From: a virus
Reading direction: 5' to 3' (one strand)
Length of the DNA stretch: 24,238 nucleotides
Virus record (IMG/VR): IMGVR_UViG_3300008266_000450
Span: 1 to 24,238 of that record
The position numbers were made by a program, and so were the translations under genes. Below the pieces are notes generated by a model. The model ran no database searches and was not told where the DNA came from. It saw only the letters and a program-made list of their open reading frames with translations. The stretch's first letter is position 1, and each line of letters begins with the position of its first letter. Shown here piece after piece: positions 2,575-20,317 of the stretch.

Positions 2575-5500
2575 TTATTTACCTGAGCCAGCCCCTAAGT
2601 TAAACCACTTAGCTGCCTCTTCTGGATTCTGTGATCTGCTTATACCATTTAAGATTGGGATAAGATCTTCTAGCCTAGCTAAGAATTTATTATCTCCCTT
2701 TAAATGAGATCCTGATTTTCTCTCATAGTACATTCCTTCTGTATCTCCAGTTATCATTCCTCCTGTCTGTATCATAAATTGATTCAGTAATTCTGTTGTC
2801 TTACCAACAGTTCTGATAGTAGCACTTGGGGACTCAGCCATCTTTACAAATTCATTGGGCTTTAAGAACTGAGTTAATTCTGATTGCATTCTAAGAGCCT
2901 GATAGATTGCAAAGTGTTCTGCAAATGATTCATCATCATCGTCATCATCTTGCAATGCACTTAGGATAGCTAGACAAGTTATAACAAAACCAATCTGTAC
3001 CCCGAATCTCTTTACATTCTGTTTTTCAAAATCCTCCATCTGTTTGTAGACGGCAGCAAAGTTTCCTCTTTTAGCAAAACTTTCTTTGAATAATCTAAAT
3101 GTAGAATGTATCAAACCTTCTGATACTGTACCCAATTCTATGTCTCTATGTAATCCACCTCCAAGTCTAGAGATGTTACCATGTCCATAGTATCTTCTAA
3201 GTGATGGGACAAAGTATCTTCTGAACAGCATGATTAGTTTACCATACCATCTTCTTTGAAGCATTGCATCATCAAACTTATTCTTAACCTGGTTTGTCTT
3301 CTTAGTCAATCCAGAGATTCTATTTCTAAGTTGTATCCTTAGTTTGTTGGCATCCTTAACTCTAGAATCAATACTGTATCTACCAGTCTTCTCATCTAAG
3401 ATGAATACATCCCATAGGTTAGCAGGCTTACCTTCTTCATTGAGAATTACCTGTCCATTGGTATCTACAATCTTACCTTCGTAAGACTTCATCAAAGCTA
3501 GCATTCTAGTAAGAGCTGTCTCGTTTTCTGCTATTGATTGTAGCATCATAGGAGTATCTCTTACAGCTCTTAAAGCTTTAGGACCACTCTTATCTTTATA
3601 GATAGAACTGGTTACATTTGATAGAGCATCGAAGTATAAAATAGCTTGTCCAAGTTTAGTCTTAGGGGCAAATGCTTCGAAGTCTTTTAACTGACCTAAT
3701 CCTTGTAGAGACAAGTGGAACTGTGACTTAGCCCATGCAAGATCAGCTTTCCCAAAGAATTGTCCAGATACTCCTTCCTCAATCAGCCTTACGTTATCTA
3801 TCAGAAGCTGGTTAGTAGCTTGAAGAGCATTGAATGCAAGGTTGTTCAGTGCTGTATACCCTGCTAGTTTTCCAGCTAGTTTGTTTACAGATATCTCTTG
3901 TCCCAATCTATTGAGACTTTCCTTTAGTTCTGTCTCCCCAAAGAATACAGTATCAATCCATTCATCAAGATGTTTAAAATTAGCAGAATCAGTATCTGTA
4001 GTTTTATATCTTGTTTTACCTACCATATTAGATAGTCTATGGATGATAGGATTGCTATCAGCAGTAGTAGCTATAGTCTCTCTATTAGATACTATATCCC
4101 TCATAAGCATTACAGCTCCTTGAATCTCTGACTTTGCTTTGTACATGTCAGACATTCCTGCAAACTGAATGATAGAGCTAACCATATCCCTAGTTATCAT
4201 CTTTTCATCAGTAGGATTGGTATAGAAGATAGGGACTAGTTTATTTCCTGATTCTTTATTAGCATTAATGGCATCTCCGTAGCTAGTATCAGTAGAGAGG
4301 AAGTTGAATCCTTCTCTAGCTTTTAGCTTTATAGTATCTATAGCTCCATCTCTTTGTACTTTCTCTAGTCCATCAGATAAAATAAATGGGGCTACATAAC
4401 TAAAGTTCTCCCAAGAGTTACCAGGCATTTTGCCTTTTCCAATCTTAGTCTGGCTTTCTTTATACTGATCTAGGAGAGCAGTGTAATATTTAAATGCAGC
4501 TGGATTGTTCTGAAGAGCAGTAAACTTTGGATTTATATACTTAGCATTAGGCTGTACTGCTCTACCTTTAAATTGTTTTGTAGTAGGATCATATATCTTA
4601 CTAATTATAGAGTTAATCTCACTTAACTCATTCATGTAGTAAGCCATCTTATCCCCATCATTTTCTGCTGTAGCAAGGTTTAAGTTAGATTGGATATTAG
4701 TTTTCTCACCAAGTAATCTAACTAATGTAGCTTTAGAATCTGCACTGGGCTCTGAGTTCTGAGCATACCATTCTGATACTCCTCTATAAAAAGATCTAAT
4801 AGTTGCTGCATTACTTTTATCCTTGAACCACATGTTTCTCTGACTCTTATCTTCTGGGATGTTATACTTCTTCCCAAGATCTTCATACATCTTAGATTCT
4901 GCATTTCTATATGCAGTTACATCGTAAGGCTGAACAAATGATAATACTTTAATTGTTTTATATTTCCCACTCTCATTATCAAAGTATGAGTGATCTACTA
5001 ATTCAGTAATATCTTCGTTAAATTTATTAGCATCAAATCCAGTTCCCTTTACCTGGCTATACTCATCGTATGCTCCAGCAAGTTTGAAGATTACGTCTTG
5101 AGTATTTTGATTAGCCTCAAGCATTTTGTTCTTAACTGTAAGAGCAAACATCTGAAGACTAGCCTGAGAAGAATATACTAGTGGGTCTAATAGATAGCTG
5201 AAATAAGATTTATCTGTCTGAGCTTTTCTGAGCTCTGCTTCAATAGTATCCTTACCAATTCTCTTCTTCTCCATCTGCCTTATATTCAATTCTACTAAAG
5301 CTTGCTGGTAAGCATCATCTGTCAAAGTACCTTCTTTGTTAGCCCTTTTAAGTGCATTATACTCTGCATCTTTATCTATGGCTATAAGTCTTTTGTTCTT
5401 ATCAATGTTATCTATAATGCTATTAATCTGATCATTAATCTCAGGAGTATGATACTCCATGAGCATGTCTGCTATCATAGGGATACCTGTATTAAGATAG

Positions 5501-7224
5501 TCCTCATGTACAACATCCATTCTATCAATAGCATCTACTAGTGTCTTCTCCACACTGCTAAGCTTTGCATACTCTGGGTCAGTAGCTCTCTGCTCTTCAG
5601 TAAGTCTTCTATTCATTCTCTTAAGCTTAACAGCTACAAGAGATCTTACTCTCCCCATGATACTCTTACTCTTATCTACCCCTCCATAAAAGTCATTCAA
5701 ATACATGTTGACTTTATGTAGCTCTGACAATAGTCTAAGTCTATCTTCTTCCCCCATGTTCTCATTGTACTCCTCCTCAATTTTATTGAAGACTTCTTCT
5801 GCCCTTTTAGATAAAGAAGAAGTATAGGTAACAAACTCCATGAGGTCTTCTACTTGCTTTACCTTATCTAGTTTCTTCTCTAGTATCTCAAGTTTAGCAA
5901 CTGCTTTCTCATTAGCCTCTTCATCTCTTCTCTTAAGTCTGGCAATGTTTTCTTTAATACCTATCTTAACATCTGTAAGCAGATTATCAAACTTCTCAGC
6001 CAGGTCAGCTGTCCCTCTACTATCAGCTGATAAATATGTAATACTTTGAGTAAATCTAGTTTTATCAAATCTACCATCAAGCATAGTTCTAGCTAGGTCT
6101 TCTACTGCAGATTCATTAGTAAAGCCTAAAGCTTTTGCTATCTTCCTAAAGATTCTATTTACAATCTTCTGGAATTTATTAGGGTTCTGTCTATTAATTT
6201 TAGCACCAGCAAGACCAATAGCTGTAACAAGTACCTCTTTATCTAGAGCCTCTTTACTCAACTCTGGATATCTCTCTTTTACTTTAGCATATAACTCAGT
6301 CCCTTCTAGTTCCTTCATAGCCTGTTTTACTACAGGGTCGTTCTCCCCTAACAGCTCTACCAAGATGTGACTGAATTCATGGATGTGAGTATCTTCTGTA
6401 ATCTTTAGTGGGTTAAGTTTTACCACTGGATTCTTTCCAGATTCAGCAATAACTCTTCCTTTTACTTCTAGAGTAGGATCGATCTCAACATCTATATTAA
6501 CTCCAGATCTTTTAAAAGAATCCTGCATAGCCTTTATTTGATCGGCTACATTTCTGTAGGCTACGGGATCTACCTCTGCTCCAATATCTCTACTATCAGA
6601 TTTGAGATCATAGTTAGTCATCTCTACATCTGTAGCTGACTTAACAATGCTTGTCTCAGTAATTATAGCTTGAGTAAGTACTGGGGATAATGGGTTTCTT
6701 ACAAGTTGAAAGTTCTTACTTTCCTGTGACCCTCTTACGTGATTGCTAGTATACTGCTTGAGTTGTTCTCTATCGTATGGGCTAAGCTGCAATGGCTCTC
6801 TAAGTCTACGTAACTGATTCAACTGATCCTGGTCGATAGTTAGGTAGTAGTTGTAGTTCCTAAGTGGTGGTTGATTAAACGATGGGGAGAAGTTATCAGG
6901 TCTACCTTGAGCTTTAAATCCTTGAATTCTGAATACTCTTCCAGTAGCCCCATAGTTTACAGCCATGTGCATATTCAATCTTACAAGAGATTGTAAAGAA
7001 GAGCTATCTAAACTCTGTTTGCCACTCTTATCTGTAAGTATTGGCATAACAAGTTTACCTCCAGGGTTTACATACTGATGGTTAATTAAATCTTTATATA
7101 AGTCCTGGGCTGATACTTCTGCTCCAGACCTAAGTAGATCATCTATTTTATTGACTACCAGTGTCTCAGTTGGATTGGCTTTAACAACCCCGTCTGCTGT
7201 AATGTTTGATATCTGACAACTCAT
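2575..7224 (-). CDS. Giant virion-associated protein with HExxH metallopeptidase domain, 1549 aa
   Basis: Probably a packaged cargo protein, judged from its place directly after the virion RNA polymerase gene in the same operon (14-base gap). The clearest motif is THIHEFSHILVE with HEFSH at residues 282-286, the HExxH zinc site of zincins. Glu330 in KEVLVTAIG is a likely third ligand, 44 residues after the second His, and is followed by an amphipathic IVNRIFRKIAKAL helix. Residues about 405-530 are charged coiled coil. The C-terminal third includes a basic GKLIMLFRRYF segment, a hydrophobic stretch at about 1409-1424 that could cross a membrane once, and six consecutive Asp at 1426-1431. The start ATG at 7222-7224 lacks a Shine-Dalgarno sequence. 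Stop is TAA. Substrate and role are unknown: it could be a protease for virion maturation, a host-directed effector, or a mainly structural ejection protein. Confidence 0.8.
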   Translation of the reverse strand: MSCQISNITADGVVKANPTETLVVNKIDDLLRSGAEVSAQDLYKDLINHQYVNPGGKLVMPILTDKSGKQSLDSSSLQSLVRLNMHMAVNYGATGRVFRIQGFKAQGRPDNFSPSFNQPPLRNYNYYLTIDQDQLNQLRRLREPLQLSPYDREQLKQYTSNHVRGSQESKNFQLVRNPLSPVLTQAIITETSIVKSATDVEMTNYDLKSDSRDIGAEVDPVAYRNVADQIKAMQDSFKRSGVNIDVEIDPTLEVKGRVIAESGKNPVVKLNPLKITEDTHIHEFSHILVELLGENDPVVKQAMKELEGTELYAKVKERYPELSKEALDKEVLVTAIGLAGAKINRQNPNKFQKIVNRIFRKIAKALGFTNESAVEDLARTMLDGRFDKTRFTQSITYLSADSRGTADLAEKFDNLLTDVKIGIKENIARLKRRDEEANEKAVAKLEILEKKLDKVKQVEDLMEFVTYTSSLSKRAEEVFNKIEEEYNENMGEEDRLRLLSELHKVNMYLNDFYGGVDKSKSIMGRVRSLVAVKLKRMNRRLTEEQRATDPEYAKLSSVEKTLVDAIDRMDVVHEDYLNTGIPMIADMLMEYHTPEINDQINSIIDNIDKNKRLIAIDKDAEYNALKRANKEGTLTDDAYQQALVELNIRQMEKKRIGKDTIEAELRKAQTDKSYFSYLLDPLVYSSQASLQMFALTVKNKMLEANQNTQDVIFKLAGAYDEYSQVKGTGFDANKFNEDITELVDHSYFDNESGKYKTIKVLSFVQPYDVTAYRNAESKMYEDLGKKYNIPEDKSQRNMWFKDKSNAATIRSFYRGVSEWYAQNSEPSADSKATLVRLLGEKTNIQSNLNLATAENDGDKMAYYMNELSEINSIISKIYDPTTKQFKGRAVQPNAKYINPKFTALQNNPAAFKYYTALLDQYKESQTKIGKGKMPGNSWENFSYVAPFILSDGLEKVQRDGAIDTIKLKAREGFNFLSTDTSYGDAINANKESGNKLVPIFYTNPTDEKMITRDMVSSIIQFAGMSDMYKAKSEIQGAVMLMRDIVSNRETIATTADSNPIIHRLSNMVGKTRYKTTDTDSANFKHLDEWIDTVFFGETELKESLNRLGQEISVNKLAGKLAGYTALNNLAFNALQATNQLLIDNVRLIEEGVSGQFFGKADLAWAKSQFHLSLQGLGQLKDFEAFAPKTKLGQAILYFDALSNVTSSIYKDKSGPKALRAVRDTPMMLQSIAENETALTRMLALMKSYEGKIVDTNGQVILNEEGKPANLWDVFILDEKTGRYSIDSRVKDANKLRIQLRNRISGLTKKTNQVKNKFDDAMLQRRWYGKLIMLFRRYFVPSLRRYYGHGNISRLGGGLHRDIELGTVSEGLIHSTFRLFKESFAKRGNFAAVYKQMEDFEKQNVKRFGVQIGFVITCLAILSALQDDDDDDESFAEHFAIYQALRMQSELTQFLKPNEFVKMAESPSATIRTVGKTTELLNQFMIQTGGMITGDTEGMYYERKSGSHLKGDNKFLARLEDLIPILNGISRSQNPEEAAKWFNLGAGSGK

Positions 7225-7238
7225 CTTACAAAGTTAAT

Positions 7239-10200
7239 TTATCTACCACAAACTATAATACTATTATTCTCAGAAGGCTGGATTTTTATATCATTAGTAT
7301 ACGTTAATGATTGTACTATCTCTTGTATTCTTCCTGTAGCTTCTGATGAAGTTTTACCTGCTGGAAGAGAGTATACATTTTTATTTCTAAATCCAGTTTC
7401 TAGTCTAGCAAATAAGTTCTTCCCATTACCGTACTCCCCAACATTTATAAAGGTTCCTGTCTCCCCGTTATTAATATTTCTAAAGAAAACTACTTTATTA
7501 GGATTAGAACTAGTTAGAGTTTTAGTCTTACTGGTAAGATTATTATTACCCTCTCTAGGTATAATAGGTCTTCCTTCTGCTTTCATAGGACCAAACAACT
7601 GCAGGTATGTAACCAAGTCAGGAACTGTAAAGTAGTTAGTATCTTGTAAGAATGCTTTCTGATTATGGATATACTCCATAATACTCATTGGACTTCCACC
7701 TTCAACCTCTTGTTTAATTGTAAGAAACTCAGATGGAATTATGTCAGCATATGAACTAGCTCCTTGTCTAAATGCATTACTTAAGAATGTATGCATAGAT
7801 AGTTGTATACCTAAGTTCTTTATTTGTTTAGCCTGTGCAGCTAGTGCAGGATCTTGAATTACCCCGTTAACAATTTTGATAGAGTCAGCTGTAGCATTTA
7901 AGAAAATCTGAGGACTAAACATCATTGCTTTTAATGTATTAGTAAATCCTTGCTTCTCTGTTCTACTAAATCTAAATGAACCATCGAACTTAACTCCGTA
8001 GTATTTATTAGCTACGTCAATATCATCTTGGAAGTTAGATATAAACTTAGTAGCAGCTAATCTAGGGAACTGAGTTTTTAATTTAGATAACCTGGTACCT
8101 ATGTTATTAACAGGATCAGAATATAAACCACTAGAATACTTTTCTGATAAAAAGAAATTAAATGGAGAATCTTTCTTAAGCATCATGAGGAACATTATGT
8201 TCGAATCAGTTAACTCATGCATAGCTGAGGTAAATACATTTTTACCAGAAACCTCTTTAATCCTTTCCTTGAATGATAGAAAAGCTGGACTTGTTCTATT
8301 CTCAAACAATATAGATGCTACACCAAGACCGTTATCTATCAAGTTCTCATATCCTCTTTGGTATCCATAGATAGAGTTTGGACCTAAGAACTGGTCAATA
8401 ACACTTTCGTTATTATTAGGTCCAGTAAAGATTGTAGAGTTGTTTATTTCTCCAGTCTCTTCGTTAATTTCTGTATCAAAAGGTTTCCCCTTATCCTTAT
8501 AAGCTTGCATATTACTAAGCTTATTCATACCCTCCATAGCATCTGGGGTTACTCTCTTATATAAATCCAAGAGTTTTTTACCAGCTCTATTGAATGCTAC
8601 AAAGTTGTTTACGAACAGAAGTTGCTCTTGCAAGTTAACATTCTCTCTAGACAAGTTCTCAAGACTTGCTGCTTTCATTGGGTATGCTACTTCCCCATCA
8701 AAAGTCTCAGCTGATGTTTCAGGGAGAGTAATATTAGCCTTAGCCATCTCTACACGAATCTGTTTTTTAACAGTTGCAAAAGCAGCTTGTATCTTACTCA
8801 TGTCCCCGTTATACTTCTCGTTGATAATGTCTGTCATTACCCTTACATACTTCTGATTTAAGAAGTTAGTAGCTGTACGAGAATTATAGTCTGGATGAAA
8901 TCCTAAGAACAATGCTCTTACATTAGCAGTAACTAAAGAGTCATTGAGTTCATATTGTATAGGGGCCTTACCACTATCCACTGCAGCTGATAAGAATAGA
9001 GATCCTGATCTATCAGTAGTCATTCCATTAGAAGCTACTTTTAAGTATTCCATGTACTCAGTAACTTGTCCTGCTGCATCTTCTATCTTGATAGAGTAAT
9101 CCTTAGAGATTTTAACTATACCATGCTGAACTACATTTCGTCCAGATATGATATTAGCATAGATACCTCTAAGCTTATTACCAATCTGATTACGTATAAG
9201 TGCATCAGTCTCTGTAGTAATATCATTCCAGTTCTGCTCTAGTCCTAACTCAGGGATAGCTTCTTTTATTCTAGCTACTTCATCTTTTAAAGTAACATCA
9301 TCAAGTGGGGCTAGAGTTTCTTTAAAGTGAGCTGGGTTAGATAGTACAGCTTCCATTGTATCCAAGATAATGTTATCTAGTTCCTTGTATGATACATCTT
9401 GAATACTTTGCTTTTGTTCTGTAAGAGCTTTATAGTTAGGATTAATTTTGCTAACTCCGTACTTGCTTGTTGGATCCTGCTTTAGATGCGGGAACATCAA
9501 GAAGAGTTTATCTACGTCAAAGTCAGAACCCATCAACTTAATAAGTTGCCCAGGAACTACAATTGCTTTAGCATAGTTACTAGGAAGTACTGCTTTAATC
9601 TTTAGAATAATAGAGGCACTCTTATCAGCATTAGGGATACGATATCCTAGGATTCTTCTCAGTTCCTCTGGAACTTCATCCAAAGATTGACCAGGTTTTA
9701 CACCAAACTTTCTGAGTACATCTTCTCTTACCATGATCTCAGCATGCACAAGTCTCTGATTCTTACCTTGACCTTCAATAGTCAAGAACTTAAGATCATC
9801 ATCAGTTGCATGTCCACCAAGCTGAGCTACCTGAACTGCCTCATATCCACTAACCTTTTGCTTGAATACTCTGTTATTAAGCAGAGACATTATTATAGCT
9901 TCAAACTTCTTATTGTAGATTGGAAAGTCAAGTGGAGATGTAAATCTCGGGGCTCCAGTCTCATCAAACTCTATATTCAAAGCATTGAAGTAATTAGAGT
10001 GTAAGTCCCCATCTATAATCTGCTTATAAATGATATCTCTAATGTTCTTCATAACTTCAAGCTTAGCTGCATTAATAGCTTTAGGATCTTTAGTTCCAAT
10101 AGCTTCTTGAAGATCTGAAATCTTAAGTTCTTCTAGAGCAGTAAGTGTATCTCTTCTAAGCTTCTCCTCAATAGCACTATGGTATAGACTTTTAAGTCTA

Positions 10201-13200
10201 TCTCCTGTTGCTCTAAATTCCTTTCCAGATATACCATGATTATAAGTATACTCTGTATCATCTGCTACATTGGCAATTGTATTCTTTTTAACCTGACGGT
10301 TAGCAGTAACAGTTGGATTGTCTTTAACCTCAGGCATGGACTGTGGTTTTCTAAGACCCTTAGAGTCATTAGTCTTAACCATAGTAGTTTTATATTCCCC
10401 AGCTATCCCTGTTACCTTATGAATACCTTGCTTAACAAGTTTCTTACCTGTAACAAAGTTAGCAACGTGCACAGGTTGTAATCCTTGGTACTCTCCTACT
10501 GCCTCCATTCTCTGTCTCAAGTCTTCCAGCTGAGGGAAGTTCTTTGTATATGAGGTAAGCAGAACAGAGTATGAGTTCTTCTCAGATATAGGGGCAATAG
10601 ATTTACCTATAGGAGATAACTTCTCATAGTAGTTCTTTATAGGATAAATGGGGACATGATCTCCAGCCTTATATCCTTTTGGGGTAAGCCCTGGTTGGTA
10701 TACAAGTTCCCCAGTAACTTTATATGCTTTGTATGCAGCCTCTTCTTCTTCTCCCCACAGTCCTTCTCCCTGTGCTAACCCTCTATACATCTCAATACTA
10801 ATGTATGCCTGAGCATCAGTAGAGTCAAAGGTTCCAGGAGAGTATTGACTTGATATGGCAATGGCATCTGCTTCTGAAAAGCCAGCTGCAATCATCCCAT
10901 CTTTTAAGTTCTTTACTAAAATTTCTGCATACTTTGTCTGCCTTTCATTTATATTCAACTTCAAGTCTGCAAGAGTTATCTCGTTGTACTGGTCCATCAT
11001 ACCGTACATCTCTCCATTCATCCATGTAGGACTTCCTAAGTTGTCAGACTTTAAAGCATACTTACCACCTGGGGTAGTTAGATGCCCCATACGTTTGTAG
11101 AAGTCAGTTAAGTCTTTAGAATAAACTCTTGATCCACGGAATAGCTTAACCATCTCGTTTCTCATAATAGTTTCTTCGTATACAAAAGATTGTAGAACCT
11201 CATCTACACTTAAACCTTGAGCATTACCTAGACCTAATCTATTTACTTCTGTCCCTAATATTTCTTTGAGTTTAACAGCTTGACCATCCATGTAAGTAAT
11301 AACCTTCTCTACCATCATGTTTAGCTCTCTGTCTAGTATCTCAGAGTCTTGCTTAGATTTCTCACCAAGCTTACCAGTAACATAATCATCTATAAGATCA
11401 CTAATATACTTCTTAGCTGTTGGTTTCTCTACATTCTTAGTAAGCTCTTTGTCTAATACTATCTGAGCTCCATTCTCATCTGTAGCAGTAAACTGGAAGA
11501 ACCTAGAATCAAAGTGTCTTCCTAAGTGCTTACCATTCTCATCGTAAAACTGTCCTGTTATAGGATCATTGTGTACCCCTTCTATAATGAAAGACATGTC
11601 CTTAGTCTTAAGGGCCTGTTCTACTACTCTTTTAGCTTCAGCAATTCTTAAGAAGTCTTGTATAATTTGAGCTTTAACTACACTCTTCTTATCTGACTTA
11701 GGAAGTTTACTTTTTGAAATTCTTGGGGTTGTAAGTGATGAATATTTATTTCTATCAGCTTGTACAGATATAAATGTCTTAGCTGTATCCTTTCTTCCCC
11801 CATTAAGATATGCATTTATTCTTACAAGGTATGAGTCTATCTTAGAGATATCTTCGTATGTAAGTACATCGTCAGTCTCATCTTCTTTCCATGCATCTAG
11901 ATCTTGAACATTGAAGTCTGCTAGATACTCTGGAGATTCAAGCAAGTATCTGAATAGAATAGATTGGTATTCTTTAACTCCATGAGCCCCGATAAACGGA
12001 TCATTCATGTAATCCTGTAGAGTTTGCAGAGGTCTTTCTCTAATGCTATTTACAATCTCAACCATGTGTGATTGAGTGTTTGTAGCATACCTAGCCTTAC
12101 CATCAGCTCCTACGTGACTCTCCCCAGCTATGCTTAGTACTGGAGCAAACATATCAGCTAGAGTAAGAGCTACAGATGTATTATTAACTATAAAGTTAGA
12201 GTTATCCTTTATCCCAGTACTTAGGTTCTTAAGTAATCCTGTTATAATGTTTGCTACAGCCTCCCCTTTATAGAAGACAGTCTTTCCATTTGGATCAGTG
12301 TAATATGTACCATTAGCTACTAGCTTATAGATATTATCATAAGTATCACTGATATTAGAATTACTCCCAATATTCAATCCCATCTCCCACATAGCATCCC
12401 CTACAGCTTTTACTAGCTCAGGGATATTATTTCTATCGTAAGGAACTACAGGATTAGGAATTCTAGGAATTTTAATATTATCTAGAGCTTTTTTAATGCT
12501 GTCTACTTTATCCTTCTTAGCTGTAAGAATCATTACAGGTTCTTCCCCTTCTTCTACTGTAGTAGGTACTTCTTCATACACACCTCTAGAGTTAGTTGCT
12601 CCAGTAGCAATTACTTGCTTTCTCCACTTATCAACTACGTTTTCAGATTTACCCTTTCTATTAGGGTTGATCATATCTACATATAACTTTGATCCTACTT
12701 GTCTATTCTTCATAAGAACAAACTCAGTAGTTGCCAGTGCAAATGCATTGTACATCATAGCCATGTCCTGTACTCTTCCCTCAGTCTTCAACTTATCAAA
12801 GAATTGTACAATAGGGTTTAGTATCTCAGGCTTAAATACAGCTGCATTCTTTAGAGCAGTATACATGCTATTAAAGCTTCCCTTACCTGCAAAGATGTCT
12901 AGTAGTTCTTTGTAGACTACCTCTCTATCTAGGTATGTCTCTACCCCTAAACTATTTTTAGTACCAGACTTAATAGTAGATATAAGTTCTTTTACTTTAC
13001 CTGTAAGTCTCCTAGCTGGTGAGTCTTCCAAATTACTTTTACCGTATATTTTCTCTAGCTGTCCATCAATAACTGCTAGTTCATTTTCAATAAAGTCTGC
13101 CTCTTCTTCTGGGAGAGTTTCATTTTGCAACTCATAGTATTTATATTCATCTTTACCTATCAGCTTCAATCCATTCTCCTGTAGTTTATAAGCCAAAATA

Positions 13201-14330
13201 TCTCTCCAGCCATATTTAATTATATTACCTGTAACTGGTTGAAAGGTTGTATACCATGTATTGTAGATATCGTAGAAGGTATCTCTAACTTTTCTATTAT
13301 TTTCATAGCTTGCTTTAGCATTAAGACTAGCACCTAGTTCTTTTAAAGCATTAGCATTCTCTGGAGTTTTATTGTCCATAAATGCTTTTTCAGCATTGAA
13401 TAAAGCAATAGAGTTTTGTATGCTAAGTGGTTCCCCAGTTTCTCTATTTACATAAAGTCTCATAGCCATTGCATTAGCTAGTAAACCTTTATTAGTCTCA
13501 TCCCCTACTAAAGCAGTTACATCAAAGTTTTTCCCAAGCTTAGCTTTAGTATCTAAGAACACAGTATACAGTGTGTCCTTAACTTCATTGAATGCTTCCT
13601 CTGTATATTCATTTCTATACATGTAAGCAGTATCATGGCCTTGGAATTTCTGTGGATTTCTAAATACTCCTCTAGATGCAAAAGCATCTGACATCTTATT
13701 ACTTTCTACTAAAGAGTACAATTGCTTAATGGATAGATCGTCACTTATAAGTGACTTAATCCAATTCATTAAATCCTTAAACCACTTACCTAATTTACTT
13801 AGCAAGCCTTTACCACTTTCTCCTTCAGTCTTTACATACTCCATGAATTCATCAGCCATCTTCTCTTCTAATACTAGAAGTCTAGCCTCTGCATCCCCAA
13901 TAGGAAACAGTTCTTTTAGAACAGCAATCTCTTCTGTTGTTGGCTCACCAAACTGTTTAGCTGCCTCAGAGTATAACTGATCTCTTTGTGCTTGGCTAAG
14001 CATGGTTCTAAATACCATATGGTATCCTTCGTGGTATTCAGTTCCTGAATCAGCTGCAGTCCACAAATACATGCTAGCATTCTGTACATACCCATGTAAA
14101 AACTTATCTCCTATGTTCTTAGCATAGTCATAGAATGTTACATCCAGTCCTCTTTCATTAAGCCATTGCTTAGCAGCTGTGGCATTAATCTGTTCTGGAT
14201 TTTTAAGAGCTTGCTTTATCTCTTCTTTTCTATTCCAGATATAGTTAGCAGACTTCTCTCCGTACTTAGATACGAGAGTGTCAAACTCTTCTTTGATTTT
14301 TGGGTTGGATAGGTTTGGACAAAATGCCAT
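7239..14330 (-). CDS. Virion RNA polymerase of crAss-like type, with N-terminal HExxH domain, 2363 aa
   Basis: Likely a single-chain DNA-dependent RNA polymerase carried in the virion and ejected with the genome to transcribe early phage genes, as shown for phi14:2 gp66. The decisive motif is GSDFDVDKLFLMFP: Asp1603, Asp1605 and Asp1607 form the DxDxD Mg-binding loop of the beta'-type double-psi barrel. It is preceded by GYRIPNADKSAS and LPSNYAKAIVVPGQLIKL, the usual upstream strands in these proteins. A segment near residue 1490 (NNRVFKQKVSGYEAVQVAQ) also fits the family. The N-terminus (MAFCPNLSNP) leads into HEGYH at 100-104 with an EEKMADEF helix at 155-162, a zincin-like site, then an amphipathic KWFKDLMNWIKSLI helix. 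It is larger than phi14:2 gp66, which I recall as about 2,200 residues. ATG at 14328-14330, no clear Shine-Dalgarno, TAA stop. It is 11 bases downstream of the 1991-residue gene. Confidence 0.87.
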   Translation of the reverse strand: MAFCPNLSNPKIKEEFDTLVSKYGEKSANYIWNRKEEIKQALKNPEQINATAAKQWLNERGLDVTFYDYAKNIGDKFLHGYVQNASMYLWTAADSGTEYHEGYHMVFRTMLSQAQRDQLYSEAAKQFGEPTTEEIAVLKELFPIGDAEARLLVLEEKMADEFMEYVKTEGESGKGLLSKLGKWFKDLMNWIKSLISDDLSIKQLYSLVESNKMSDAFASRGVFRNPQKFQGHDTAYMYRNEYTEEAFNEVKDTLYTVFLDTKAKLGKNFDVTALVGDETNKGLLANAMAMRLYVNRETGEPLSIQNSIALFNAEKAFMDNKTPENANALKELGASLNAKASYENNRKVRDTFYDIYNTWYTTFQPVTGNIIKYGWRDILAYKLQENGLKLIGKDEYKYYELQNETLPEEEADFIENELAVIDGQLEKIYGKSNLEDSPARRLTGKVKELISTIKSGTKNSLGVETYLDREVVYKELLDIFAGKGSFNSMYTALKNAAVFKPEILNPIVQFFDKLKTEGRVQDMAMMYNAFALATTEFVLMKNRQVGSKLYVDMINPNRKGKSENVVDKWRKQVIATGATNSRGVYEEVPTTVEEGEEPVMILTAKKDKVDSIKKALDNIKIPRIPNPVVPYDRNNIPELVKAVGDAMWEMGLNIGSNSNISDTYDNIYKLVANGTYYTDPNGKTVFYKGEAVANIITGLLKNLSTGIKDNSNFIVNNTSVALTLADMFAPVLSIAGESHVGADGKARYATNTQSHMVEIVNSIRERPLQTLQDYMNDPFIGAHGVKEYQSILFRYLLESPEYLADFNVQDLDAWKEDETDDVLTYEDISKIDSYLVRINAYLNGGRKDTAKTFISVQADRNKYSSLTTPRISKSKLPKSDKKSVVKAQIIQDFLRIAEAKRVVEQALKTKDMSFIIEGVHNDPITGQFYDENGKHLGRHFDSRFFQFTATDENGAQIVLDKELTKNVEKPTAKKYISDLIDDYVTGKLGEKSKQDSEILDRELNMMVEKVITYMDGQAVKLKEILGTEVNRLGLGNAQGLSVDEVLQSFVYEETIMRNEMVKLFRGSRVYSKDLTDFYKRMGHLTTPGGKYALKSDNLGSPTWMNGEMYGMMDQYNEITLADLKLNINERQTKYAEILVKNLKDGMIAAGFSEADAIAISSQYSPGTFDSTDAQAYISIEMYRGLAQGEGLWGEEEEAAYKAYKVTGELVYQPGLTPKGYKAGDHVPIYPIKNYYEKLSPIGKSIAPISEKNSYSVLLTSYTKNFPQLEDLRQRMEAVGEYQGLQPVHVANFVTGKKLVKQGIHKVTGIAGEYKTTMVKTNDSKGLRKPQSMPEVKDNPTVTANRQVKKNTIANVADDTEYTYNHGISGKEFRATGDRLKSLYHSAIEEKLRRDTLTALEELKISDLQEAIGTKDPKAINAAKLEVMKNIRDIIYKQIIDGDLHSNYFNALNIEFDETGAPRFTSPLDFPIYNKKFEAIIMSLLNNRVFKQKVSGYEAVQVAQLGGHATDDDLKFLTIEGQGKNQRLVHAEIMVREDVLRKFGVKPGQSLDEVPEELRRILGYRIPNADKSASIILKIKAVLPSNYAKAIVVPGQLIKLMGSDFDVDKLFLMFPHLKQDPTSKYGVSKINPNYKALTEQKQSIQDVSYKELDNIILDTMEAVLSNPAHFKETLAPLDDVTLKDEVARIKEAIPELGLEQNWNDITTETDALIRNQIGNKLRGIYANIISGRNVVQHGIVKISKDYSIKIEDAAGQVTEYMEYLKVASNGMTTDRSGSLFLSAAVDSGKAPIQYELNDSLVTANVRALFLGFHPDYNSRTATNFLNQKYVRVMTDIINEKYNGDMSKIQAAFATVKKQIRVEMAKANITLPETSAETFDGEVAYPMKAASLENLSRENVNLQEQLLFVNNFVAFNRAGKKLLDLYKRVTPDAMEGMNKLSNMQAYKDKGKPFDTEINEETGEINNSTIFTGPNNNESVIDQFLGPNSIYGYQRGYENLIDNGLGVASILFENRTSPAFLSFKERIKEVSGKNVFTSAMHELTDSNIMFLMMLKKDSPFNFFLSEKYSSGLYSDPVNNIGTRLSKLKTQFPRLAATKFISNFQDDIDVANKYYGVKFDGSFRFSRTEKQGFTNTLKAMMFSPQIFLNATADSIKIVNGVIQDPALAAQAKQIKNLGIQLSMHTFLSNAFRQGASSYADIIPSEFLTIKQEVEGGSPMSIMEYIHNQKAFLQDTNYFTVPDLVTYLQLFGPMKAEGRPIIPREGNNNLTSKTKTLTSSNPNKVVFFRNINNGETGTFINVGEYGNGKNLFARLETGFRNKNVYSLPAGKTSSEATGRIQEIVQSLTYTNDIKIQPSENNSIIVCGR

Positions 14331-14341
14331 CTTTAATTTTA

Positions 14342-17300
14342 TTATGAGTTACATTCTCTTCTTACCATTTCTGCTAGATCTGGATTTCTTAAAGCTTCTT
14401 CAGCAGCTCTTTGTTCTGCCTCTGCTTCTGCATCTACACTGCTTTGTGGTCTTGATAGCACATATGAAAGTAGATCATTTGTAGTAGCAGCAGCTGCTTG
14501 AGTAGGTTTAGCAGTAGGTGCAGGTGCCTGACCTAATATGTCATATGTATCAGTAGTACTTTGAGGACCTGTTATCTCCATAACTGTTTCTTCAGGAGCA
14601 ACTTGAGTAGCTGCTTCTTCCTCTAGAGCATCGTATATGGCATTAATCTGATCTATCATTTCATTCTCAGTGGAAACTTGCTCAAACACTATCCCATCTT
14701 TTGCTCCACGAGTATTAAACGTAATACTAGACTCACCTGTTCGTCTATTAATTTTATTTATACCCCATATATTCTTTAGAGCTAATTGTCTTCTTCTCTC
14801 TATATCAGAAACAGGGGCTTCTGGTTCTATAGTAGCTAAAGCAGATTTGTAGTCCTCATCAAAAGATATGGCTACTTGTTTAGCCTGCAAGTCTTCTTCT
14901 ACTTGTGTTGGCTTTTCTACTGTGCTCAAGTTACTTACCTTCAAACCTACATCATAGAATACAGAACCATGATTGTTAGTTATTACATCTGCAGTTAGGA
15001 TAGCATTAGATCCTACTCCTTCCTCTCTTGCGGTAGATAAACTTGTATCACTAGTCAAAAAGTCGTAGTAGCTTGGATAAGTCTTATTGTCAATAGGAGA
15101 TGTAAATGCCTCATTAGCAGTAAGTAAAGCTTGTGACACTTGCATCTTTTTATTGAGCATAGCTTGTTTGAAATCCTCCCCTAATCTACTGCTAATATCA
15201 TCTCTATTTACAGAATCATTAGGAATTGGGAGAATAGCAGGATACCCTTTTTCATTAAGTCCAATCTCTATAAATGAGAATCTTGGGTTACCTCCAGACA
15301 ATCCAGCTTTTAACTCAGTCATGTTAAGTCTAACAAAAGCATTAGCTGTCTGAGAGAAGAAGGTTACTAGTTGAGTACCATTTAATAGAGTCTCTACAAG
15401 CATAAAGTTATTACCTTCTGCTTGCTTTAGATCTATGACATCCTCATTAGCTTGAGAAGGCATATCATATTGCCCACTCTCTTGCTCACTAATAAGTTGG
15501 TTAACACCTACTAAAGTCTCTAAAGTAGAGGCTGTTGGTATCTCTGCTTTTACAATAGAGTCAACTACAGTTGTAACAACCTCTGGGGTTACGTTCCTAG
15601 TATTACCAACTACCATAGTAGGGTTGCCATTAGGATCTCTAACGGGGAATACTACCTGTCCAGGAGTCAGTTTACTTAAATCAAAATTTACAGATTCTAT
15701 TCCAGGAATTAGTGTATCTCCAGGTGTAGCTAATCTCAACACCTTACCTGTTCCTTTCTGAATACCTACATACATTACAGTAGGTACTCCTCCATCTGGT
15801 CGGAATGGGGAAAATACTGGTTGTCCTCCTGTAGTTCTAGCATTAGAGAAATTACTAGAGTTATATCTCTTAGTAATTACAGTAGCAGTAGGGGTTAATC
15901 CTTGCTTATATAAGTTGTAGATATCCCTTCTATCTAGACCTTGTTCTCCTGGTGCCAATGCTGGATTAGCACTTTGTAGAAGAGCAATGTATACCTTCTC
16001 CCCAGTTGTTGGATTAATAGCTGTTGCATAAATAGGAACAGTCTCCCAATGTTTATCCTCTGGGAGAGTAGGAGATTGGCCTGTCCACCACTTAGTATCT
16101 TCTCTAACTTCAAATGTAATAGTGGTCCCAGCTGCTGCAAACTCAGGCAATCCTAGAATTCCTGGATCTACAATAATTGGTAATCCATCTACTGTCTGAG
16201 TTAAGTCGTTAGGCATAGGCATGAAGTCCTCATTGAGTACAACATGATGCTCTTCATTAGTTAGGAACTCTCCCTTAGCTAATCTAACATCTGACTCTCC
16301 AGCTGTTCTTACTACTGGGATAGTAGTCTCTACTGTTGGAACAACACTAGTAGCTTGAGGTGCTATTTCAGTAACAGGGATATTATTCTGTATATTTTTC
16401 TGCTCTTGTTCTCTGACAACTTCTGCTGCCATCCCAAGTTGCTGATTTATTAACTCAAGTGCATCAACACTTATTGGTGCCAGCCCTTGTTCTTGAGTTG
16501 CTGTTCCAGGATTGATATCCTTTGTTTCAGGGTCTTGCCCTTCAGTAGGTTGACCAGCTCTTTCGGCAGCGTCACGGTTTTGACGTAGTTCCTCAAGTTG
16601 TCTCTTTTCATTTACTTCGTTTATTTTGTTTCTACGTTTAGTAATCTTTGCTTTAACAACTCCAATTTTTTTATTGGTATCTTTTAAAGCTACTACAGCA
16701 CCTGCTACATCTTGATTTTCCCCATACTTGCCGTCTATAATATCCTTATATGCTTTAGCTACCTCTGTAAGTGGAGCTAATTCATTCTCTAGATTTTTAA
16801 TCTCTTCTTCTAATCCTGCTAAAATAAGATCTTCCTCACTCTCACTAAGAGTCTCGTCTACTACATTCTCAGTATTAACATCTGTATCAGGTAGAACATT
16901 TCTTTTCTTAGCTTCTTTTCTACTACGAAGAGTTTTAATCTTAGTATTTAAAAGTTGAGAAATTCTTTTCTTTATCTCTCTAAGCTCCTTAATCTGTGGA
17001 TCAGCATCAAATTCTTTTTTAGTGAATCCAGCCTCCATAGCAATCTGTCTCTCTAACTCTAGAAGCTCATTCATTTCTTCTAGATCAGCCTTCAAAGTTT
17101 CTACTTGTACTCTAAGCTGATCATCAGTTAGTCCTGCAGTTTTACTAAGATTATTTTTAGCAAGCTCCTCTTCAGTCTGAGTAGCTTCTGTATTCTCTTC
17201 AAACTTTTCTCTTACTGCAGCATCTTCTAAAGCAGCTTGAACTCTAGGTTCTAACTCCTCTCTAGCTTCTGCTGGTGACATAGTCTGGTCAGCTCTAATA

Positions 17301-20300
17301 GAGCTTGCTTGTAGCAGAATTACATATGAAAGAGAGTCTATAATTGCATTCTCTTTTTCTACTACTTCTGGATTAGATGATTCAGATACGTTTTCAAATC
17401 TCCAAGTAATTACATTACCTGTAGACATATCTGTTAATCTAACACCTTGAATATTTCCATCACTATCTCTAACAATAGCATCTAGTAGGTTGTCTTCTAG
17501 ATTGTAATAAGACTTACCATTAATTATAAATGCTGAACCATCAGGACTAATCATTATCTCCCCAAATGTTCTAGCTTCTATATCAGATAGAACTTCGTCA
17601 TAGCTTATATCTGTGCTAACAGGGGAGGGAGATTCTATTTGAATATTCTTACTATTAGCAGCATCTCTAATATCTTTCTGCCTCTTTACTCTTCTATATG
17701 CTACTTCTTCTGCAGGAGATAACTTATCTTCATCAATTGCATTGAACTCATCGTCAGTTAACTTCTCATACCCTCTAGCAAGAATATCCTCTTGTTCTTC
17801 TAGTTCTCTTCTTCTAATCTTAGCCAGGGCTAAATCCTCTGCAGAAATTCCTGTAGGAAGAGCTAAATCTAGTTCTTCTGTAGATTGTGCATTTTCTATA
17901 GTTGACTTAGCTTGCTGTGCTTTTTTATAAGTATCATTTAGTTTTCTTTTCTCTACCTCAGCTTCTACGAGCAAAGCAAGATCCTCAGGATTATTACGTA
18001 ATCCGTTATAACTCTGAATGGCAGCTTGCCTTTCCATAATCAAACGTCCTAAGCCATCGATAGTTTTTTCAAAATCCTTAGAATCTTCTGGATTAAGAGC
18101 AAACTTATTTGCTAAAATATCCTTTAGCTTTTCATTTAATTTATCTGTCTTCTTTCCTGTAACAGTTGACTTTACAGTTACGTTTCCATCTTTTGATATT
18201 TCTATCTGCCCAGTCTTAACCATGTAGTCAAAGTCCTCTTCAGGAACCTGAGCTAGAGCTGGAGCTTTCTCAAGTAGCTCTTGGTACTTATCTTTAATAA
18301 GATCATCAATACTATCTACATTCTCAAGTCTATACAAGAGTTGATTAGCATACATGTTTCTCAAACTAGACTCTAATGCTTTAGATTCTCTAATTTCTTT
18401 AGTCTCAAATGAATCAAGTATTCTAGAGAAGATTGCTTTAGATGGTTGTTGAGCTCTTATAATAGATTCTACTTGCTCTTGTCTCTTAATGCTTCTATTC
18501 ATCTTAGACTTGACATCATCTATAAGCTCAGCTTGTTCCATGCCAGTCTGTTCTTTCAAAGTCTTATTAACATCGTAACCCCATCTTTTCTTAAATTCAG
18601 TCTCATCAAGTTGTTTAAGATCGTCTATTTGCTCCATTGCATAGTCAAGAGCTCCTGACTTTCTATAGTGATTAGCTGTATTAGAGATGATTCTTCTTCT
18701 AATCTTTTCTGCTTCAGTAAACTCTCCCTTTTGTACAGCCTCATTCATATCCTTAACCAGAGATAAGTTATTTTCTGTATTCTCCATATTTTCTAGAACT
18801 TTTGCAAAAGATCCAGAGTTTAGAATATCGAGAGCTTTCTTAGTATTTGCAGTTTTCTCTTGGGCAAACTTCTTATCAGCTCCAGCAAGTCTTCCAAGCA
18901 TTCCTGTTCCTCCTCCTACAAGAGCACCAATAAGCATGCTCTCCAATCCCTCTTTAGTTCCTACTGTATTGGCTAAGGCTTTACTAAAAGATTCAGCCAT
19001 ATCCCCAACACCATCAGCAAACTTATCTGAGTAATAGTCCCTAGATAATTCAGAAGCTGTAAACTGTGCTCCTTCTTGGAAAGCTTCAGTTGCAGAATTC
19101 TTTATTGGGGCTCCAAAGAGTCTATTAGCTTTAGCAAATGCTCTTGCCATTCCCTTCTCTGGAATGGCTTCTATCCATTTACCATCAACTTTTTTAATAC
19201 CATATGTTAAAGATTCAGAAGCTGGCTTACCTGTTTGGAGCATTTTTCCAAACATGATCATATTAGTAGTTGCAAGAATAGGAAGGTTTATACTAAAGGT
19301 TAAGTTACCTGCAGCGGCACCTGATGCTACAATTCCTTCTTCTACATCTGCTGGCATTTCTTGACCTGGATTCTCTTCCTCCCATTTAGCCTTCTGCTCT
19401 TCAATAAATCTATTCTTAGTCTCTCTAGCTTCTACAGATGCTTCAGCTAATGACATATGTAAGCCTACACTTAAGTGTTTAGCAGCTGTTTTGATATTGG
19501 CTCTTCTAGCCATAGCTGTTAAGCCATCATCTATTCCAGCTGCAAAGTTTGGGGCATATGGGGCATTTACAACCTTAGCTGCATTGTATGCTTGGAACTG
19601 TTTACTTCCGAACTTTGCAGCATCTTGAGTAACATCTAAAGCTTTATCAGTTGCTTGAGCTATCTTCCCCATCCTTCCTGCATTAGCCATCTTTGCAAGC
19701 ATAGCTCCCTCACCAACACCTAACCACATAGTAGCCATAGAACCTACTGTGTATCCAACACCGTTGGCAAATTTATCAGCCCAGAAGTTCATAGTTCCCA
19801 GACCCTCTACTAATCCTGCTTTCTCTTCTTGTTTAGTGTAGTAGTTGGGCATGTTTACTCTTGCCCAATTGTTCACATCATCTATAGTTCTTCCTACAGG
19901 GTTATCATAGTAGCTATGATTTTCTCCAAATGCTAAGTTTAATAATCCCCCAACTACACCAACAGTATTTTCTGCAAGAGCTCCTACAGCAGTAATACCT
20001 GCTTTAGTTAATCCATATCCTAATTGCTCTCCCCATGTTTGGTTCTGAGCTCTAGTATCATTCCAATCAATAAATGCATTTCTTGCTACCCCGTAACTTG
20101 TATAGCTTTCTAAAGGATCAGTATACGTATTAGTTAACCTGACTGTTCCAGCAGCAATATCTAATCCATCAAATCCATACTGTCTTCCTTTTCCAGGATT
20201 TAGATATGTACCAGACTCACGTTGTACAGCTGATATTAATGGATTACCAGGCTTTAACTGTTCTTGGGTTAAGCCTGTTTCTGCAGATACAGCATTTAAT

Positions 20301-20317
20301 AATGGGTTATTCGACAT
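14342..20317 (-). CDS. Giant putative ejection/cargo protein with membrane-like segments and coiled coils, 1991 aa
   Basis: No enzyme motif recognised. The N-terminal quarter holds several Gly/Ala-rich hydrophobic segments: about 103-131 (ITAVGALAENTVGVVGGLL), 186-203, 328-358 (ASGAAAGN...LPILATTNMIMF) and 459-478 (SMLIGALVGGGTGMLGRLAG). The phrase EAFQEGAQFTASELSRDYY at 411-429 precedes the last one. This resembles internal virion proteins that insert into the host envelope during DNA ejection. Residues about 490-580 are helical, and 1055-1140 and 1155-1245 form long charged coiled coils. Residues about 1370-1650 are richer in Pro, Gly and strands, and the tail is Ala/Glu-rich. It lies just upstream of the polymerase gene and three bases after the 758-residue gene. 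Start ATG at 20315-20317, TAA stop. A role as envelope channel or polymerase carrier is inference. Confidence 0.75.
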   Translation of the reverse strand: MSNNPLLNAVSAETGLTQEQLKPGNPLISAVQRESGTYLNPGKGRQYGFDGLDIAAGTVRLTNTYTDPLESYTSYGVARNAFIDWNDTRAQNQTWGEQLGYGLTKAGITAVGALAENTVGVVGGLLNLAFGENHSYYDNPVGRTIDDVNNWARVNMPNYYTKQEEKAGLVEGLGTMNFWADKFANGVGYTVGSMATMWLGVGEGAMLAKMANAGRMGKIAQATDKALDVTQDAAKFGSKQFQAYNAAKVVNAPYAPNFAAGIDDGLTAMARRANIKTAAKHLSVGLHMSLAEASVEARETKNRFIEEQKAKWEEENPGQEMPADVEEGIVASGAAAGNLTFSINLPILATTNMIMFGKMLQTGKPASESLTYGIKKVDGKWIEAIPEKGMARAFAKANRLFGAPIKNSATEAFQEGAQFTASELSRDYYSDKFADGVGDMAESFSKALANTVGTKEGLESMLIGALVGGGTGMLGRLAGADKKFAQEKTANTKKALDILNSGSFAKVLENMENTENNLSLVKDMNEAVQKGEFTEAEKIRRRIISNTANHYRKSGALDYAMEQIDDLKQLDETEFKKRWGYDVNKTLKEQTGMEQAELIDDVKSKMNRSIKRQEQVESIIRAQQPSKAIFSRILDSFETKEIRESKALESSLRNMYANQLLYRLENVDSIDDLIKDKYQELLEKAPALAQVPEEDFDYMVKTGQIEISKDGNVTVKSTVTGKKTDKLNEKLKDILANKFALNPEDSKDFEKTIDGLGRLIMERQAAIQSYNGLRNNPEDLALLVEAEVEKRKLNDTYKKAQQAKSTIENAQSTEELDLALPTGISAEDLALAKIRRRELEEQEDILARGYEKLTDDEFNAIDEDKLSPAEEVAYRRVKRQKDIRDAANSKNIQIESPSPVSTDISYDEVLSDIEARTFGEIMISPDGSAFIINGKSYYNLEDNLLDAIVRDSDGNIQGVRLTDMSTGNVITWRFENVSESSNPEVVEKENAIIDSLSYVILLQASSIRADQTMSPAEAREELEPRVQAALEDAAVREKFEENTEATQTEEELAKNNLSKTAGLTDDQLRVQVETLKADLEEMNELLELERQIAMEAGFTKKEFDADPQIKELREIKKRISQLLNTKIKTLRSRKEAKKRNVLPDTDVNTENVVDETLSESEEDLILAGLEEEIKNLENELAPLTEVAKAYKDIIDGKYGENQDVAGAVVALKDTNKKIGVVKAKITKRRNKINEVNEKRQLEELRQNRDAAERAGQPTEGQDPETKDINPGTATQEQGLAPISVDALELINQQLGMAAEVVREQEQKNIQNNIPVTEIAPQATSVVPTVETTIPVVRTAGESDVRLAKGEFLTNEEHHVVLNEDFMPMPNDLTQTVDGLPIIVDPGILGLPEFAAAGTTITFEVREDTKWWTGQSPTLPEDKHWETVPIYATAINPTTGEKVYIALLQSANPALAPGEQGLDRRDIYNLYKQGLTPTATVITKRYNSSNFSNARTTGGQPVFSPFRPDGGVPTVMYVGIQKGTGKVLRLATPGDTLIPGIESVNFDLSKLTPGQVVFPVRDPNGNPTMVVGNTRNVTPEVVTTVVDSIVKAEIPTASTLETLVGVNQLISEQESGQYDMPSQANEDVIDLKQAEGNNFMLVETLLNGTQLVTFFSQTANAFVRLNMTELKAGLSGGNPRFSFIEIGLNEKGYPAILPIPNDSVNRDDISSRLGEDFKQAMLNKKMQVSQALLTANEAFTSPIDNKTYPSYYDFLTSDTSLSTAREEGVGSNAILTADVITNNHGSVFYDVGLKVSNLSTVEKPTQVEEDLQAKQVAISFDEDYKSALATIEPEAPVSDIERRRQLALKNIWGINKINRRTGESSITFNTRGAKDGIVFEQVSTENEMIDQINAIYDALEEEAATQVAPEETVMEITGPQSTTDTYDILGQAPAPTAKPTQAAAATTNDLLSYVLSRPQSSVDAEAEAEQRAAEEALRNPDLAEMVRRECNS

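What the first reader, a model, noticed from the sequence alone, without database searches (positions are those of the whole stretch)
14019..14033. Zincin-like HExxH site fused to the N-terminus of the virion RNA polymerase
HEGYH at residues 100-104 with EEKMADEF about 50 residues later looks like a gluzincin site (two His plus Glu). A peptidase fused to an ejected polymerase could cut the giant chain itself, its neighbours in the virion, or a host protein on entry. This would be a multi-function entry protein with transcription and proteolysis in one chain.
Basis: partly seen in the sequence, partly recalled or inferred. Interest (0 to 1): 0.7.

Follow-up and report, generated by a model that had tools for sequence, protein, structure and literature searches.

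The report
Zincin in Cys-ended phage polymerase cargo
A crAss-like phage carries a probable zinc protease at the head of the giant RNA polymerase it injects, and the three giant polymerase-set proteins carry single cysteines exactly at the ends where relatives have them fused, which suggests that the phage delivers them as one disulfide-linked string.

Summary
The HExxH site is real. HEGYH (residues 100-104) and EEKMADEF (155-162) lie at the N-terminus of a 2363-aa crAss-like virion RNA polymerase (RNAP). In 63 aligned relatives His100, Glu101, His104, Glu155 and Glu156 are invariant. The predicted fold matches zincins (IrrE, Pro-Pro endopeptidases, ArdC). A zincin linked to virion RNAP is not new: p-crAss gp45 is annotated as 'fused to zincin protease', and N4-type virion RNAPs carry a zincin. 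New here is its place at the N-terminus of the RNAP gene, and that the domain marks a movable junction. The RNAP set is an ordered string, A-(zincin)-B-C, cut into genes differently in different phages. A second zincin sits near the start of C. One clade of fully fused giants keeps the fold but has lost the metal site (WEAFRR).

Following the junction gave a stronger result. These giants are almost cysteine-free, yet at nearly every gene break the upstream chain ends, and the downstream chain starts, with a lone cysteine (A end 46/46, B start 60/62, B end 73/75, C start 72/72). Outer and fused ends have none (0/49, 0/34, 0/37). I infer disulfide staples replacing peptide bonds. Neither proteolysis nor the disulfides are experimentally shown.

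The parts
7239..14330 (-). Unit B: 2363-aa crAss-like virion RNA polymerase with an N-terminal zincin domain
13683..14195 (-). Z1: zincin-fold domain, residues about 46-216
   Evidence: A2 alignment and AlphaFold model, pLDDT 83.5; VIA-align best matches are zincins
14019..14033 (-). HEGYH, residues 100-104: predicted zinc ligands His100 and His104, general base Glu101
   Evidence: invariant in 63 sequences
13845..13868 (-). EEKMADEF, residues 155-162: predicted third ligand Glu156 in the following helix
   Evidence: Glu155 and Glu156 invariant
14229..14330 (-). N-terminal cap of B, MAFCPNLSNPKIKEEFDTLVSKYGEKSANYIWNR; recurs at the N-terminus of unit C in Suoliviridae
14319..14321 (-). Cys4 of B: lone N-terminal cysteine at the A|B break
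9510..9524 (-). DFDVD: RNAP catalytic D-x-D-x-D motif, residues 1603-1607
7248..7250 (-). Cys2361 of B: lone C-terminal cysteine at the B|C break (sequence ...IIVCGR)
14342..20317 (-). Unit A: 1991-aa upstream RNAP-associated cargo protein, homologue of crAss001 gp47 and p-crAss gp45
   Evidence: phrog_32390, E 2e-21; blastp to crAss001 gp47, E 2e-24
14351..14353 (-). Only cysteine of A, third from the C-terminus (sequence ...RRECNS)
2575..7224 (-). Unit C: 1549-aa downstream RNAP-associated cargo protein, homologue of phi14:2 gp65 and crAss001 gp49
   Evidence: blastp E 2e-33
7216..7218 (-). Cys3 of C: N-terminal cysteine at the B|C break
6103..6516 (-). Z2: second zincin-fold domain, residues 237-374 of C
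   Evidence: 27-sequence alignment, model pLDDT 81, ArdC Z 7.8
6367..6381 (-). HEFSH of Z2, residues 282-286
   Evidence: both His and the Glu invariant in 27 sequences

Best explanation
The site is the metal-binding centre of a zincin-fold domain (Z1), probably an active zinc metallopeptidase in this phage. It sits at the head of unit B of a three-unit virion cargo string: A (crAss001 gp47-like), B (RNAP) and C (crAss001 gp49-like). In different crAss-like phages the same ordered string is one gene, two genes or three. Where units are separate, a lone cysteine near the end of one chain faces a lone cysteine near the start of the next. The most likely mechanism: A, B and C travel as one continuous string, joined by peptide bonds when fused and by head-to-tail disulfides when split. 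The string leaves the capsid through the tail in order A-B-C. It is taken apart inside the host, by reduction of the disulfides in the cytoplasm and, in lineages with a live site, by zincins lying near each junction (in the window about 100 residues past A|B and 280 past B|C). SHOWN by sequence: the conserved site, the predicted fold, the junction position, the cysteine rule. TAKEN FROM PAPERS: packaging of the three proteins in crAss001 virions, disulfides elsewhere in that virion, and a tail too narrow for fully folded cargo. INFERRED: zinc binding, peptidase activity, its target, the disulfide between units, and stepwise ejection.
For: Z1 invariants in 63 sequences. AlphaFold model, pLDDT about 80-97 around the site: strands 63-90, helix 97-110 with HExxH, helix 146-172 with Glu156. 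VIA-align rows at the top are zincins of several families: PprI/IrrE Z 5.9/5.7, PPEP-3 5.4, lethal factor 5.3, ArdC 5.0. Z1 and Z2 profiles align on HExxH, hhalign probability 90. Position: N-terminal in B in the window clade, interior in fused chains, C-terminal in A in crAss001, cr128 and Dulem 41. Cysteine rule in 123 nonredundant RNAP chains (five loci reclassified by hand): A end 46/46, B start 60/62, B end 73/75, C start 72/72; A-B-fused N-terminus 0/49, B-C-fused C-terminus 0/34, C end 0/37. Expected by chance for B starts: 1.4 of 62. At least 11 A|B and 7 B|C fission or fusion changes on the RNAP tree. The rule also holds where A is on the opposite strand (crAss001, L131, L140, L149, L157). 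crAss001 gp47, gp49 and gp50 are in the virion, its tail proteins carry disulfides, and the cargo must partly unfold to pass the tail (PMC10172136).
Against: Z1 is catalytically dead (WEAFRR, EE pair changed) in a clade of fully fused giants and undetected in phi14:2, cr111 and others, so proteolysis is not universally required. Z1 persists in split phages, where cutting that junction would seem unnecessary if it is held by a disulfide. VIA-align Z is only 5-6 and Foldseek E is above 0.1, so the fold match is supportive rather than proof; ligand geometry could not be measured. No disulfide between units has been observed. Exceptions: L177 lacks both B cysteines, the L149 B end has its nearest cysteine 27 residues in, and the L055 gene is interrupted.
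Confidence: 0.55

Rival explanations
1. Z1 is a host-directed effector: after ejection it cuts a host protein, and is fused to the RNAP only to be delivered with it.
For: Iyer et al. raise this for polyvalent-protein MPTases (PMC5512222). Z1 persists in split phages where junction cleavage looks unnecessary.
Against: Z1 stays at the A|B junction across very diverged phages, and Z2 also lies just past a junction. Diversification driven by a host target was not examined.
Confidence: 0.2
2. Z1 is mainly a structural module for folding, packaging or subunit docking, and the catalytic site is dispensable.
For: A clade keeps the fold (33-103 bits) with WEAFRR in place of HExxH and the EE pair changed. 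Z2 is degenerate (PEExAH) in several lineages.
Against: Five metal-site residues are invariant in 63 diverse sequences, which a purely structural role would not require.
Confidence: 0.2
3. The terminal cysteines do not pair across the break; each end is anchored elsewhere (metal, portal, another copy) or is modified.
For: No bond has been observed. A cysteine near the C-terminus also occurs in some other cargo proteins, e.g. p-crAss gp47 and crAss002 gp30.
Against: Cysteines occur on both sides of a break and vanish from both when the units are fused, while outer ends lack them.
Confidence: 0.25
4. The HExxH is a chance motif.
For: HExxH is short.
Against: 0.02 expected per chain; invariant in 63 relatives; zincin fold predicted.
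Confidence: 0.01

Closest known systems
p-crAss (Carjivirus communis) gp45, 'putative RNAP associated protein fused to zincin protease' (BK010471), and other crAss-like RNAP blocks
   Same: Same cargo block; a zincin about 200 residues from the end of A, next to RNAP
   Different: There the zincin is on A and diverged (HESLH, LEEFLVESIT; profile match 66%). In the window it starts B. The terminal-cysteine rule was not found in any paper read here.
N4-like (Schitoviridae) virion RNAP with MPTase / C1 domain
   Same: Virion RNAP and an HExxH zincin-like domain in one giant ejected chain (PMC5512222, PMC12633501)
   Different: N4 RNAP is a single-subunit T7-like enzyme with the zincin C-terminal to it; crAss-like RNAP is a two-barrel enzyme with D-x-D-x-D, and the zincin is N-terminal to it
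Zincin-like MPTases of phage and plasmid polyvalent proteins (e.g. P1 DdrB, ArdC)
   Same: Predicted fold, HExxH plus Glu in a later helix, modular fusion in early-acting proteins; ArdC is the best match for Z2, Z 7.8
   Different: No sequence match in Pfam or PDB; the clade is not established
IrrE/PprI (M78-like) and Pro-Pro endopeptidases
   Same: Best structural matches for Z1; HExxH...ExxA arrangement as in IrrE (motif comparison from general knowledge)
   Different: Stand-alone cellular enzymes; sequence identity under 20%

Membership tests
Zincin-fold metallopeptidase (gluzincin-like) | HExxH with two His and catalytic Glu, conserved | tested here: met
   H100, E101 and H104 invariant in 63 sequences
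Zincin-fold metallopeptidase (gluzincin-like) | third ligand Glu in a following helix | tested here: met
   E156 invariant, in predicted helix 146-172
Zincin-fold metallopeptidase (gluzincin-like) | fold: beta sheet, HExxH helix, Glu helix | tested here: met
   AlphaFold model has this order; the leading VIA-align rows are zincins, Z 5.0-5.9; Foldseek E alone is not significant
Zincin-fold metallopeptidase (gluzincin-like) | binds zinc and cuts peptides | not testable with these tools
   needs purified protein
Polyvalent-protein MPTase (Iyer 2017 clades) | sequence membership in one of the published clades | not tested
   clade alignments not at hand; only fold similarity to ArdC
crAss-like virion RNAP | D-x-D-x-D core related to phi14:2 gp66 and crAss001 gp50, with A and C neighbours | tested here: met
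crAss-like virion RNAP | packaged in the virion | not testable with these tools
   shown for crAss001 homologues (PMC10172136), not for this phage
Head-to-tail disulfide-linked cargo (proposed here) | one cysteine on each side of every break, none at fused or outer ends | tested here: met
   window: A Cys -3, B Cys4 and Cys -3, C Cys3; wider set
Head-to-tail disulfide-linked cargo (proposed here) | disulfide bond present in the virion | not testable with these tools
   needs non-reducing gel or mass spectrometry

The most novel reading that the evidence does not exclude
crAss-like phages deliver their giant virion RNAP set as a single covalent string. Peptide bonds and terminal-cysteine disulfides are interchangeable links between units: the disulfides hold the string together during ejection and release the units in the reducing cytoplasm, while zincins near the links do or once did the same job proteolytically.
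Probability: 0.5. Interest if true: 0.88.

Novelty: new variant of a known kind. Interest (0 to 1): 0.72.

Why it matters
How podophages push proteins of 150-600 kDa through a narrow tail in the right order is open. The cysteine rule gives a concrete, cheap test: whether unreduced crAss001 virions contain one linked species of about 690 kDa (gp47 + gp50 + gp49, summed from the masses in PMC10172136). If they do, these abundant gut phages use redox-cleavable staples to make a polyprotein from separate genes. The zincins then become candidates for the release step in fused forms, and the dead-zincin clade is a natural control.

Tried and rejected
Pfam on the window protein and on nine Z1 members, and PHROGs on the window protein: no meaningful hit. 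PDB sequence searches with the Z1 profile and with the full chain: no convincing zincin hit. Full-length P0001 against IMG/VR by peptide patterns: nothing. Idea that Z1 must cut every fused A-B junction: dropped, because fused giants with a dead or undetected Z1 exist. Idea of a cysteine-switch latch (Cys4 on the zinc): dropped, because the same N-terminal cysteine is on chains without a zincin, and C-terminal cysteines follow the same rule. Ascertainment bias, because the first 80 loci were chosen by having Z1: addressed by a second scan on the RNAP core, where the cysteine rule held but Z1 did not always. Apparent exceptions: L007, L070, L126, L131 and L178 were misclassified by my length cut-offs; L094, L096, L084, L140 and L162 have an upstream ATG and a M-x-C type start within 40 codons; L055 is an interrupted gene. 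L149 and L177 remain. The Nature 2021 paper on phi14:2 gp66 and the 2018 crAssphage genomics paper are not held, so prior mention of the cysteines there cannot be excluded.

Full report
What was checked. The ORF on the minus strand at 7239-14330 encodes 2363 aa, with HEGYH at residues 100-104 and EEKMADEF at 155-162. It carries the crAss-like RNAP motif GSDFDVDK at 1601-1608 and matches annotated RNAP proteins of crAss001, cr85, cr128, phi14:2 and others at 22-34% identity. The window is a 24-kb fragment held as a virus record. Neighbours on the same strand are A (14342-20317, related to crAss001 gp47 and p-crAss gp45) and C (2575-7224, related to phi14:2 gp65 and crAss001 gp49).

The zincin. 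Starting from nine diverged copies, a profile scan of IMG/VR gave 336 confirmed relatives, of which 80 loci were kept. In 63 nonredundant sequences H100, E101, H104, E155, E156 and F162 are invariant. One further locus, L019, has the same HExxH and EE with A159 changed to G. The AlphaFold model (pLDDT 83.5) has short strands at 63-90, the HExxH helix 97-110 and a long helix 146-172 that carries E156. This is the layout described for zincin-like MPTases (PMC5512222). Foldseek against PDB is not significant (best E 0.4), but the VIA-align second look puts several distinct zincin families on top: PprI/IrrE, Pro-Pro endopeptidases, lethal factor, ArdC. Foldseek against predicted viral structures finds the same domain in crAss-like giants (E down to 3e-7) and weaker matches in polyvalent proteins.

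Where the zincin sits. Its place is fixed relative to the RNAP core (in most loci about 1250-1570 residues upstream) and to the A|B junction, but not to gene ends. It starts gene B in the window clade (L012, L014-L025, L030, L031). It lies inside A-B fused chains in Suoliviridae and many environmental contigs. It ends gene A in crAss001, cr128 and Dulem 41. p-crAss and relatives have a diverged zincin at the end of A, which the p-crAss record already annotates as zincin. So a zincin beside virion RNAP is known, also from N4-like phages; the N-terminal placement is a variant. A second zincin, Z2, lies at residues 237-374 of C (HEFSH; invariant HExxH and Glu in 27 sequences; model pLDDT 81; ArdC Z 7.8) and is related to Z1 (hhalign probability 90).

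Loss of the site. In fully fused giants L133, L139, L142, L143 and L151 the Z1 domain is clearly present (59-103 bits) but reads WEAFRR instead of HEAFH, with the EE pair changed. L153 and L176 also read WEAFRR or WEAMRR. Z1 is not detected in phi14:2, cr111 and several RNAP-selected loci. So the peptidase is common but not indispensable, and a strict junction-cutting role is not supported for all.

The cysteine rule. While comparing N-termini I saw that B and C chains start M-x(1-5)-C and that A chains end in a lone cysteine. In the Z1-selected set: A|B breaks 22, cysteine on both sides 22/22; B|C breaks 39, both sides 39/39 after one corrected start. In a combined set with an independent RNAP-selected scan (123 chains), after reclassifying five loci whose architecture my length cut-off had misjudged: A end 46/46, B start 60/62, B end 73/75, C start 72/72; N-terminus of A-B-fused chains 0/49, C-terminus of B-C-fused chains 0/34, C-terminus of C 0/37. 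The raw script output before reclassification was 46/46, 56/58 (52/58 at the first ATG), 72/74, 71/71, 4/53, 1/35 and 0/37. Of the chains fused throughout, most have no cysteine in 5000-5600 residues (L034-L040, L114, L132, L133, L142, L143, L151, L153, L174); L074 has two, neither terminal. Some of these run off the stored stretch. In A-B-fused chains the junction region holds a cysteine in 1 of 50 loci. B-C-fused chains of the p-crAss type are less depleted; 12 of 41 entries have some cysteine in a 500-residue stretch where the junction should lie. Other genes of these phages have 1.1-2.3% cysteine, against 0.026% inside the Z1-selected chains. On an RNAP tree the A|B state changed at least 11 times and the B|C state at least 7 times (many branches are weak), so this is not one inherited accident. 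It holds in named phages of three families: crAss001, phi14:2, cr128, cr111, p-crAss, crAss002, cr110, cr118, cr53, cr4, cr50, cr10, and in the unclassified Dulem 41. Where RNAP is interrupted by an endonuclease insertion instead (bajarodcaudo virus 1), no cysteines appear at the break, as expected if that break is removed at the RNA level.

Interpretation. A cysteine on each side of a break, present only when there is a break and absent at outer ends, is best read as a bond across the break. Disulfides are known elsewhere in the crAss001 virion, and the three RNAP proteins are among its cargo, which must partly unfold to pass the tail (PMC10172136). I propose a head-to-tail string A-B-C with redox-cleavable links, with zincins as proteolytic helpers or relics of a proteolytic release. 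The sequence rule is shown; the bond and the proteolysis are inferred. I found no mention of the rule in the papers read, but two key subscription papers could not be read.

Verdict. The wider finding, interchangeable peptide and cysteine links in a giant ejected RNAP string, is what deserves the follow-up.

Noticed in passing
window 14351-14353, 14319-14321, 7248-7250, 7216-7218; loci L012-L178: Terminal-cysteine rule at nearly every break between the A, B and C cargo units, with fully fused giants mostly free of cysteine.
   Followed up: yes
window 6103-6516: Second zincin domain (HEFSH) near the start of unit C, homologous to Z1; degenerate to PEExAH in several other lineages.
   Followed up: yes
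L133, L139, L142, L143, L151, L153, L176: Z1 domain retained with WEAFRR or WEAMRR in place of the HExxH site in a clade of fully fused giants.
   Followed up: yes
window 14229-14330; cr118 QOR58374 and cr4 gp27 N-termini: A portable N-terminal cap (CPNxSxPxxKxxFxxLVxxxGExxAxxIW) starts B in the window clade and C in Suoliviridae, each time carrying the cysteine.
   Followed up: partly
L095 (PQ006092) 11957-20140: RNAP of bajarodcaudo virus 1 is interrupted inside the catalytic DFD|VDK motif, next to an endonuclease gene; likely an intron.
   Followed up: no
p-crAss gp47 (L011 30141-32714) and crAss002 gp30 (L094 1340-3013): Cargo proteins upstream of A also have a cysteine near the C-terminus with no matching N-terminal cysteine next door.
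   Followed up: no
L001 4326-16343: A 4006+ aa chain carries A-like sequence, zincin, RNAP and a P-loop helicase-like segment with no cysteine; cr118 and cr50 homologues are annotated 'DNA helicase'.
   Followed up: no
L055 about 13600-13900: RNAP chain interrupted between zincin and catalytic core by a frameshift, intron or assembly error.
   Followed up: partly
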